From Balneolaceae bacterium (GTDB lineage Bacteria > Bacteroidota > Rhodothermia > Balneolales > Balneolaceae), in assembly GCA_009711805.1 (NCBI GenBank), contig VEMX01000020.1, forward strand, positions 1 through 42,184: a stretch of DNA of 42,184 nucleotides, written 5' to 3'. The translations under genes were made by a program, and so were the position numbers. This document shows, piece after piece, positions 6,005 to 8,025 of this stretch. A model generated the notes under the pieces. The model was not told the DNA's origin. It saw only the letters and a program-made list of their open reading frames with translations, and did no database searches. Position 1 is the first letter of the stretch. Each line of letters opens with the position of its first letter.

Positions 6005-6439
6005 TCAGTTAAATACCTCTCCCGGTTGCCGGGGCGGTCTGTCATAATCCATATATGGGTAGTCCCACCGGGGGTGGGTGAGATAATCTCTCCACTTCCA
6101 CACTTTGAGTGGGTTAAACCGGAAGGTTCGGTATATGGTGGTATCCTGGGTACCGGGGTTTTCTTCCAGGTAATCATTAAAACTTCGATCCATTATTTCC
6201 AGGTCTCTTTTCCCTCTTATTTCCGTAAACTCAAAATTGTGATTTTCGGTGGTGTAATAATAGTGAGTTAATAACCCGTCTATTCCCAGATATATAGGTA
6301 GTACCGGCGAACTATTTAGAACTAAAATAATCACCAGGATGGTACCACCAAGCCATTTCCATTGTTTTTTGACAGCCAGGGTTACAATAGTTGACAGTAT
6401 AATTACCCAGGCCAAAATCATAAGTACTAAATACAACAT
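6005..6439 (-). CDS. Small membrane-anchored protein of unknown function
   Basis: The family is not recognised. The 144-residue protein has two hydrophobic helices (about 3-24 and 29-49), a short third hydrophobic patch (SPVLPIYLGI), then a polar, aromatic-rich tail of about 80 residues with RGKRDLEIMDR and WDYPYMDYDRPP. It starts 18 bp after the stop of the longer reading frame of the upstream gene (6458), so the two form a tight pair on the minus strand. The context is compatible with a partner or protective protein for the peptidase-like product, which is speculation. The his leader and promoter follow downstream. Confidence 0.6.
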   Translation of the reverse strand: MLYLVLMILAWVIILSTIVTLAVKKQWKWLGGTILVIILVLNSSPVLPIYLGIDGLLTHYYYTTENHNFEFTEIRGKRDLEIMDRSFNDYLEENPGTQDTTIYRTFRFNPLKVWKWRDYLTHPRWDYPYMDYDRPPRQPGEVFN

Positions 6440-6457
6440 ATCGGTTCTATTTTTTAG

Positions 6458-6658
6458 TTACACGTTCCGGTATCATTAGCTGGATTACCAGCTATGCGTT
6501 CAGCACCTATCCCCACCAAATCTTCTCCAAAATTACCGGGATTAACCCCTCCACCTCCCGGCCAATCTCCAATTGTTAATGGTATATTTACCCCGGCAGC
6601 ATTCGCAACATTCACCGCAAGATGTGTACAATTGTGATGGCTCAGATGATAGGTCGTT
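6458..6658 (-). other. Out-of-frame C-terminal extension of the peptidase-like gene
   Basis: Read in the frame reached by adding one G (or losing two) in the tract, this strand codes GTTYHLSHHNCTHLAVNVAN, then AAGVNIPLTIGDWPGGGG, VNPGNFGEDLVG and ends TGTCN-stop at 6458. The pattern YxLxxxNCTxxA...AGVxxP...NPGxxGEDL is what I expect after GHSFF in Cys/His peptidase-like domains. The gap between the two genes is therefore coding sequence, not spacer. The combined protein would be about 378 residues with Cys321 opposite His235. Confidence 0.7.
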
Positions 6659-7589
6659 CCCCCCCCCCCCCCCCGGCATTCCTGATAATATTCAATATAC
6701 CATTTAATTCATCCGGCATTACCATCACGTCAAGGGTAACATTAAAATTTTCATCGTCATCAATTCCAAGAACACCTGAGGACATTGGGTCAGTAATTGG
6801 ATTCACCATACGCTCATTAGGGTAATATCCTATTGTTCTCCTTATTGTTTTCCCACCCAAATTTTGTTTGATTGTAAAAAAAGAATGGCCTACATCAAAT
6901 CCATTATGGGGTTCATCAGTTCCAGGATCAGGCTGATCCGCATGAAGAGATACTATAGCATGTTGACCTGTATCAAAACACGCCAGGTGCTCATCTATAT
7001 CTTCAATTGGGTGATCCGGACTCGGAACTTCAGCCTGAAATAGCTTCTCCTCAATATCCCAATAACACTCATCAACATCATCAGGGCAATCCTGGTAGTT
7101 CCCGTCGCCGGCTGGGGCTGTGCCTCCGGTTCCACCAGAAGCCCCTCCTTCGCCTCCACCCCCTCCCTGAACAGGCGAGCACACGGTTTCATATTCTACT
7201 CCTACAAACTCGGTATCAAGATATTCAACTGTGTTACCACTAACCAGATACCAATCTTTATATATATAGGTTGGTATCTCTTGACAATCCACTCCTAATG
7301 CTTGCGAGCCATTTTTTATGGCTGTGAACGCTTCTTTACTAATTGTTTCCGGAATTCCGGAAAAAACACCTTGATCATATCTTTTCTTAAACACTTTTTC
7401 CCCGCCAGCGTTAAAAAGTATAATCAAGCCTGTATATTTGTCTAAATGATTCCAGCGTACTTGTTCTGTATCTCCCGCTTCTCTCTTTAAAAATTTCAAG
7501 ACATAAAACTCCGGGCTTCCACCTTGTTCAACAGCAACTATTTTATATACTTTCAGGCTGTTTTCTTGTCCCTTTTTATCCCTTGTCAC
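6642..7589 (-). CDS. Secreted-type protein with Gly-rich linker and truncated Cys/His peptidase-like domain
   Basis: As it stands, this reading frame gives 315 residues. The first ~135 residues are a beta-rich region of the kind common in Bacteroidota exported proteins, although no signal peptide is seen and the only start is a GTG just after a stop, so the 5' end may be lost. A Gly-rich linker (142-162) follows. The third part has GHSFFTI (His235) and a DUF4105/NlpC-P60-like flavour (IGYYPNER, SSGVLGIDDD). The frame then enters a homopolymer coding GGGGG and stops after ERPII. In another frame the domain continues to 6458 with an Asn-Cys motif. The domain call is from motif memory only. Confidence 0.6.
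   Translation of the reverse strand: MTRDKKGQENSLKVYKIVAVEQGGSPEFYVLKFLKREAGDTEQVRWNHLDKYTGLIILFNAGGEKVFKKRYDQGVFSGIPETISKEAFTAIKNGSQALGVDCQEIPTYIYKDWYLVSGNTVEYLDTEFVGVEYETVCSPVQGGGGGEGGASGGTGGTAPAGDGNYQDCPDDVDECYWDIEEKLFQAEVPSPDHPIEDIDEHLACFDTGQHAIVSLHADQPDPGTDEPHNGFDVGHSFFTIKQNLGGKTIRRTIGYYPNERMVNPITDPMSSGVLGIDDDENFNVTLDVMVMPDELNGILNIIRNAGGGGGERPII
6659..6674. repeat. C16 homopolymer tract inside a coding region (candidate phase-variation switch)
   Basis: Sixteen consecutive C on the plus strand (G16 in the coding strand) fall within a conserved-looking domain. With 16 the frame ends 5 codons later. With 14 or 17 it would run on for 68 residues. Long G/C tracts in coding regions are known slippage sites used for phase variation. 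Sequencing or assembly miscounting of the tract is the obvious alternative. Confidence 0.75.
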
Positions 7590-7779
7590 GGCACTTAACC
7601 CGAATTATTCACGAATGGATGCAAAATGGCGATCTATATACTTTTTATTTGTACTCGTTTAGCTGAAACAAGTACTCATCCGGAATATTCCAACTAATTT
7701 TAAACTTCTTATTAGCCTCTTTGCTACAACTGCTTTAACTTTAAGGCAACAATAACTTAAAAAACCATACAAGATTTAT

Positions 7780-8025
7780 ATGAAAACTATTGCCCAGCTC
7801 TCTTATATCCCCTTGTCGACAGAAGATCCAAGAGAAAAAGTACAAGAGCTGCTTGAACACCTCGCACAATATGACGTCAAGATTGAGGTAGGTTATATGT
7901 CTACAACCATTATTGGTCAACCTGAGGTTGTTTTTGAAGTAATAGAAGAGCTCTACAAAACAATGACACTGGAAACCAACAGATTCCGTTTCCACATTGA
8001 GCTGCTATCTCCTTTAAACGAGTAA
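7780..8025 (+). CDS. Thiamine-binding-like protein, MTH1187/YkoF family
   Basis: This 81-residue soluble protein has the alternating beta-alpha pattern of the MTH1187/YkoF-like (thiamine_BP) family: an opening strand IAQLSYIPLS, helix EKVQELLEHLAQY, strand KIEVGYMSTTIIGQ, helix EVVFEVIEELYKTM and strand RFRFHIELLS. Family members bind thiamine or related compounds as dimers of ferredoxin-like folds, and the physiological role is often unknown. It is slightly shorter than the usual ~95-100 residues. A T-rich stretch just after the stop (8030-8060) may aid termination. No thiamine transport or synthesis gene is next to it. Confidence 0.6.
   Translation: MKTIAQLSYIPLSTEDPREKVQELLEHLAQYDVKIEVGYMSTTIIGQPEVVFEVIEELYKTMTLETNRFRFHIELLSPLNE

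What the first reader, a model, noticed from the sequence alone, without database searches (positions are those of the whole stretch)
6458..7589. C16 tract may switch the catalytic-type Cys of a peptidase-like domain on and off
Seen: 16 C in a row inside a coding domain. With 16 the protein stops five codons later. With 14 or 17 it gains 68 residues containing YHLSHHNCT and NPGNFGEDL, and the stop then falls 18 bp before the next gene. Inference: His235 (GHSFF) needs the Asn-Cys beyond the tract, so slippage would toggle activity. Homopolymer slippage in G/C tracts is a known phase-variation mechanism.
Basis: partly seen in the sequence, partly recalled or inferred. Interest (0 to 1): 0.76.

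Follow-up and report, generated by a model that had tools for sequence, protein, structure and literature searches.

The report
Orphan toxin-like cassette with C16 frameshift
A run of 16 identical bases does cut a predicted antibacterial enzyme in two just before its conserved active-site cysteine, but the gene has also lost its start and export signal, so it looks more like a dead leftover toxin cassette beside an intact protective gene than a working on/off switch.

Summary
Sixteen C lie at 6659-6674 inside a minus-strand ORF (7589-6642), and the 68 codons beyond the tract are out of frame. They are genuine: 47 full-length domain homologues run straight through this point. His (6885-6887) and Cys (6628-6630) are invariant, and many homologues end, like the window frame, in "GTCN". 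A confident model of a homologue (pLDDT 96.7) matches permuted NlpC/P60 enzymes (TseH Z 10.5, PPPDE1 7.2, YiiX 7.0). Homologues sit at the C-terminus of lipoproteins or directly after Rhs cores. Most have a small gene just downstream, and the window's downstream gene is related to those of three of them. So this is a C-terminal toxin/immunity-like cassette.

The switch itself is not shown. The window copy lacks about 90 N-terminal residues, including any signal peptide, and has no ATG upstream of the catalytic His. No homologue carries such a tract. The genome's other two long tracts are intergenic. I favour a 5'-truncated orphan cassette in which the tract grew with little or no selection. 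A contingency locus, or a wrong tract length in the assembly, stays possible; reads or sister strains would decide.

The parts
6642..7589 (-). ORF as assembled (GTG start; ends ERPII-stop just after the tract): C-terminal part of a lipoprotein-type carrier, Gly-rich linker, first two thirds of the permuted NlpC/P60-like domain incl. catalytic-type His (codon 6885-6887)
6659..6674 (-). C16 (G16 in the mRNA) tract, in the loop before the nucleophile helix; homologues have 2-6 residues and no glycine run here
6454..6658 (-). out-of-frame continuation of the domain: YHLSHHNCTHLA...NPGNFGEDL...GTCN, stop 6454-6456; contains catalytic-type Cys (codon 6628-6630)
6005..6439 (-). intact 144-aa membrane protein gene, candidate immunity gene; related to the genes downstream of the domain in L116, L117 and L118
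   Evidence: E 1e-15 to 2e-8
7113..7175 (-). Gly-rich linker (QGGGGGEGGASGGTGGTAPAGDG) between carrier part and C-terminal domain; similar linkers in relatives
7596..7779 (-). stretch where the missing carrier N-terminus and signal peptide would lie; stops in all frames and no remnant better than shuffled sequence
7780..8025 (+). intact divergent small ORF (81 aa) that occupies the space where the carrier's 5' end would have to be

Best explanation
The locus is an orphan C-terminal cassette of a Bacteroidota-type polymorphic toxin: a fragment of a lipoprotein carrier, a Gly-rich linker and a C-terminal permuted NlpC/P60-like hydrolase domain, followed by an intact membrane-protein gene that is probably its immunity gene. 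In complete relatives the lipoprotein carrier (or an Rhs shell) would bring the domain to another cell's envelope, where the His/Cys pair would cut a lipid ester or an amide, while the small downstream membrane or lipoprotein gene product protects the owner. Here the 5' end with start codon and signal peptide has been lost, and a poly-C tract has grown in a loop just before the nucleophile helix, so that at 16 bases the Cys is not translated in frame. The tract most likely grew by slippage with little or no selection in an already silent cassette; the immunity gene is still intact. Shown: tract, frames, homology across it, invariant His/Cys, fold of a homologue, Rhs and lipoprotein carriers, paired downstream gene, missing 5' end. 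Inferred: toxicity, immunity, substrate, and lack of selection on the tract.
For: Homologues run continuously across the tract position; H and C invariant in 47/47; AF2 model pLDDT 96.7 matched to TseH Z 10.5, PPPDE1 7.2, YiiX 7.0; profile hit to TseH 6v98, E 0.016; Peptidase_C97, Lnb_N and TseH among weak Pfam hits. Polymorphic-toxin architecture: directly behind Rhs_assc_core in L087, L099, L104, L107; lipoprotein carriers otherwise; N-terminal relatives carry other C-terminal domains, e.g. Tox-MPTase3; small downstream gene a few bp away in most loci, the window's homologous to three of them. Orphan state: first about 90 residues absent, no ATG before the catalytic His, no other carrier in the genome. 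Truncated or broken relatives exist: L013/L124 starts without its 5' end right behind another gene, L010 and L011 have internal stops, L105, L114 and L115 start mid-domain. Neisseria mafB-CT cassettes without initiation codon followed by mafI are a published precedent (PMC4287609).
Against: The ORF is still open for about 300 codons before the tract and 68 codons after it, so the decay is recent or something maintains it. A GTG at 7589 could start a cytoplasmic protein. Toxicity and immunity are unproven, and no promoter or expression data were examined.
Confidence: 0.6

Rival explanations
1. Contingency locus: slippage of the C tract switches the C-terminal half of the domain, and so the enzyme or toxin, on and off in a population, with the immunity gene always on.
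For: Very long tract inside a conserved domain, far above chance; only 1 of 3 length classes gives the full domain; both halves open; the tract lies in a length-tolerant loop. A relative (L034) has a G11 tract that puts a T9SS-type C-terminal sorting domain out of frame.
Against: No start codon or signal peptide for the carrier; no homologue of 56 has a C/G run of 8 or more in this gene; the other two long tracts of the genome are intergenic; no length variation could be observed.
Confidence: 0.17
2. Assembly or amplification error: the tract is real but its length is miscounted, and the true allele may be in frame.
For: Draft assembly of 99 contigs; homopolymers of 16 or more are prone to miscounting (general knowledge); the post-tract sequence keeps every invariant residue of the family.
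Against: Cannot be tested here. Even in frame the gene would still lack its 5' end.
Confidence: 0.15
3. Transcriptional slippage on the G16 run makes a mixture of in-frame and out-of-frame products from one template, so that some full-length protein is made without any change in the DNA.
For: Length and position of the run. This is a known mechanism at long homopolymers, mostly A/T runs (general knowledge).
Against: Less expected for rG:dC runs; same 5' truncation problem.
Confidence: 0.05

Closest known systems
Tox-Act1 / TseH / DUF4105 (Lnb_N) clades of permuted NlpC/P60 enzymes (PMC12994826; PMC3142127)
   Same: His before Cys, same fold (TseH Z 10.5), toxin context, membrane-associated neighbour protein as reported for Tox-Act1
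   Different: Carriers are lipoproteins and Rhs proteins of Bacteroidota, not T6SS effectors of Salmonella or Vibrio; no Pfam or NCBIfam family reaches its cut-off over the domain
Polymorphic toxin systems (Zhang et al. 2012, PMC3482391)
   Same: Exchangeable C-terminal domains, small downstream gene, Rhs shells, Tox-MPTase3 on a related carrier
   Different: The window copy is orphaned and out of frame; the lipoprotein carrier is not described for this domain in what I read
SitA lipoprotein toxins of Myxococcus (PMC5562445)
   Same: Lipoprotein-carried polymorphic toxins
   Different: Sequence relation to SitA and delivery by TraA-dependent outer membrane exchange were not tested
mafB-CT silent cassettes of Neisseria (PMC4287609)
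   Same: C-terminal toxin cassettes without initiation codon, followed by an immunity gene
   Different: No full-length carrier found elsewhere in this genome
Poly-G/C contingency loci (e.g. Neisseria meningitidis, PMC5084427)
   Same: Long mononucleotide run in a coding region with frame-dependent product
   Different: No evidence of length variation; defective 5' end

Membership tests
Permuted NlpC/P60 (papain-like) enzymes | Catalytic His precedes catalytic Cys; both conserved | tested here: met
   Invariant in 47 homologues plus the window pieces
Permuted NlpC/P60 (papain-like) enzymes | Fold of the permuted NlpC/P60 core | tested here: met
   Model of homologue L067: TseH Z 10.5 (133 aligned, 3.6 A); PPPDE1 7.2, YiiX 7.0, PLAAT3 4.2. 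Foldseek alone gave nothing significant
Permuted NlpC/P60 (papain-like) enzymes | Curated family match by sequence (Peptidase_C97, Lnb_N, TseH) | tested here: inconclusive
   13, 7 and 3 of 47 members match weakly; best E 0.00056 is for Peptidase_C97; for the window piece Peptidase_C97 E 0.2, below the cut-off
Polymorphic toxin system | Same C-terminal domain on different carriers, and same carrier with different C-terminal domains | tested here: met
   Lipoprotein and Rhs_assc_core carriers; N-terminal relatives with Tox-MPTase3 and other C-termini
Polymorphic toxin system | Candidate immunity gene directly downstream | tested here: met
   Small gene within about 20 bp in most loci; the window's is homologous to those of L116-L118. 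Immunity function itself not tested
Polymorphic toxin system | Toxicity neutralised by the neighbour protein | not testable with these tools
   Needs expression in laboratory E. coli
Phase-variable contingency locus | Tract whose length sets the reading frame | tested here: met
   C16; only 14, 17 and similar lengths join the frames
Phase-variable contingency locus | Tract length varies among clones or strains | not testable with these tools
   One genome in the genus, no reads
Phase-variable contingency locus | In-frame allele encodes a complete exportable product | tested here: not met
   5' end with signal peptide missing, no ATG before 6809
Phase-variable contingency locus | Tract kept in orthologues | tested here: inconclusive
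   No C/G run of 8 or more in any of 56 homologous loci, but these are distant (best 43% identity); true orthologues were not available

The most novel reading that the evidence does not exclude
A toxin/immunity pair in which slippage of a poly-C tract inside the enzymatic domain itself switches only the toxin's nucleophile on and off while immunity stays on, so that a clone always contains a few armed cells.
Probability: 0.12. Interest if true: 0.75.

Novelty: new member of a known kind. Interest (0 to 1): 0.42.

Why it matters
It joins two things that are easy to misread in annotation: a C-terminal domain family of Bacteroidota that reaches no curated Pfam or NCBIfam cut-off but has the marks of a permuted NlpC/P60 toxin, and a homopolymer tract that looks like a phase switch but lies in a gene with no usual start. 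If reads did show tract variation with in-frame alleles, it would be a toxin switched at its own active site.

Tried and rejected
Pfam, NCBIfam and PADLOC on the assembled ORF gave nothing. tblastn against plasmids gave nothing. The first genome-contig scan with the whole ORF found no relative, probably because the query carried the variable carrier; an alignment of the domain found 56 loci. I looked for a decayed 5' remnant upstream of 7595: tblastn and a frameshift-tolerant alignment did not beat shuffles (score 39, against a shuffle mean of 29.5 and maximum of 45), so I do not claim one. Considered and rejected: that the extension is chance reading of another frame (excluded by homologues); that the tract is part of the Gly-rich linker (it lies in the domain, about 440 bp further on). 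Foldseek against PDB gave no significant hit; the relation came from the second aligner. I examined tracts of 11 or more in related genomes for a common gene class: they are scattered and mostly unrelated.

Full report
Observation. On the minus strand an ORF runs from a GTG at 7589 to a stop at 6642 and contains G16 (C16 on the plus strand, 6659-6674). It is the only homopolymer longer than 8 in the window. A first-order Markov estimate for the 4.08 Mb assembly is well below one run of 16 or more. The assembly has 35 C/G runs of 8 or more, of which three reach 11; these are 16, 17 and 24 long. The frame arithmetic of the finding is right. The downstream gap is 14 bp (stop 6454-6456, next ATG 6439), not 18.

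The extension is real protein sequence. A search of 394 genomes of the phylum with the two parts of the domain joined found 11 other genomes whose proteins cross the tract position without interruption. A scan of named genomes with a profile found 56 loci: Flavobacterium, Kordia, Chryseobacterium, Chitinophaga, Mucilaginibacter and others, with single Bryobacterales and Planctomycetota bins. In 47 aligned domains the His of GH[TAS]F, the Cys of N-C-[TS] and the Pro of NPG are invariant. Many homologues end in GTCN or a close variant, as the window frame beyond the tract does. The tract falls in a short loop between the last helix of the first part and the nucleophile helix; homologues have 2-6 residues there and none has a glycine run.

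Fold. An AlphaFold2 model of the homologue L067 domain has pLDDT 96.7. Foldseek alone found nothing significant, but structural alignment of its candidates ranks TseH (Z 10.5), PPPDE1 (7.2) and YiiX (7.0), with PLAAT3/H-REV107 lower. These are permuted papain-like enzymes of the NlpC/P60 type, with His before Cys (PMC3142127; PMC12994826). Weak sequence hits agree: Peptidase_C97, Lnb_N/DUF4105 and TseH. Related toxins Tox-Act1 and TseH have phospholipase activity (PMC12994826), so 'peptidase' should not be assumed.

System. In four sampled loci the domain follows an Rhs_assc_core (L087, L099, L104, L107). In most others it ends a lipoprotein of roughly 400-640 residues. The window's N-terminal half has five related places in four genomes of the same family, and there the C-terminus is something else: Tox-MPTase3 in L012 (E 6e-16) and other domains, some with HExxH-like motifs. 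A small gene follows the domain within about 20 bp in most loci, usually with a signal peptide, lipobox or membrane segment by eye; the window's 144-aa neighbour is homologous to those of L116, L117 and L118. This is the architecture of a polymorphic toxin with its immunity gene (PMC3482391). Toxicity and immunity are inferred, not shown.

Why not simply a switch. The window ORF lacks about 90 residues that relatives have at the N-terminus, including the lipoprotein signal. The reading frame has no ATG before 6809, which is already beyond the catalytic His codon. The 184 bp upstream are closed in all frames and hold no detectable remnant, and a divergent ORF starts at 7780. No second carrier was found in the assembly. 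Other members are damaged too: an internal TAG in L010 and TAA in L011, a 5'-truncated copy behind another gene in L013/L124, and mid-domain fragments L105, L114 and L115. None of the 56 homologous loci has a C/G run of 8 or more in or near the gene, and the genome's other long runs are intergenic. Neisseria has comparable C-terminal cassettes without initiation codon, each followed by an immunity gene (PMC4287609). I therefore favour an orphan, silent cassette in which the tract grew with little selection, and give about one in six to a true contingency locus. The long open frames on both sides of the tract are the main point against decay.

What cannot be decided here: tract length in reads, variation among strains (only one genome is held for the genus), expression, and activity.

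Noticed in passing
L034 about 1502-1512 (G050:C1:579111 region): A G11 run in a relative puts a T9SS-type C-terminal sorting domain (LSSGTYIYRLEAG...) out of frame with the preceding GVYEVYFD: a second candidate tract-frameshift in a secreted protein of the same family.
   Followed up: partly
L060 about 1500-1511 and L046 1502-1514: C/G runs of 12-13 lie at the start of a lipoprotein ORF (L060) and directly before a start codon (L046), positions typical of phase-variable genes.
   Followed up: partly
G000:C11:21180-21196 and G000:C33:31581-31604 (L015, L016): The two other long C/G runs (17 and 24) of the genome are intergenic, the second between two convergent genes (one of them gcvP-like).
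   Followed up: partly
L087, L099, L104, L107: The same domain sits directly behind Rhs_assc_core, in Bryobacterales and Chryseobacterium; it reaches no Pfam or NCBIfam cut-off.
   Followed up: yes
L123 and L125 (ends of two contigs of G034): Two very similar carrier parts with different C-terminal domains lie at contig ends, as if a repeat of carrier genes broke the assembly; one has an internal TAG.
   Followed up: no
L105, L114, L115: In-frame fragments of the domain that start in mid-domain, next to immunity-like genes in Flavobacterium: broken or orphan copies seem common.
   Followed up: no
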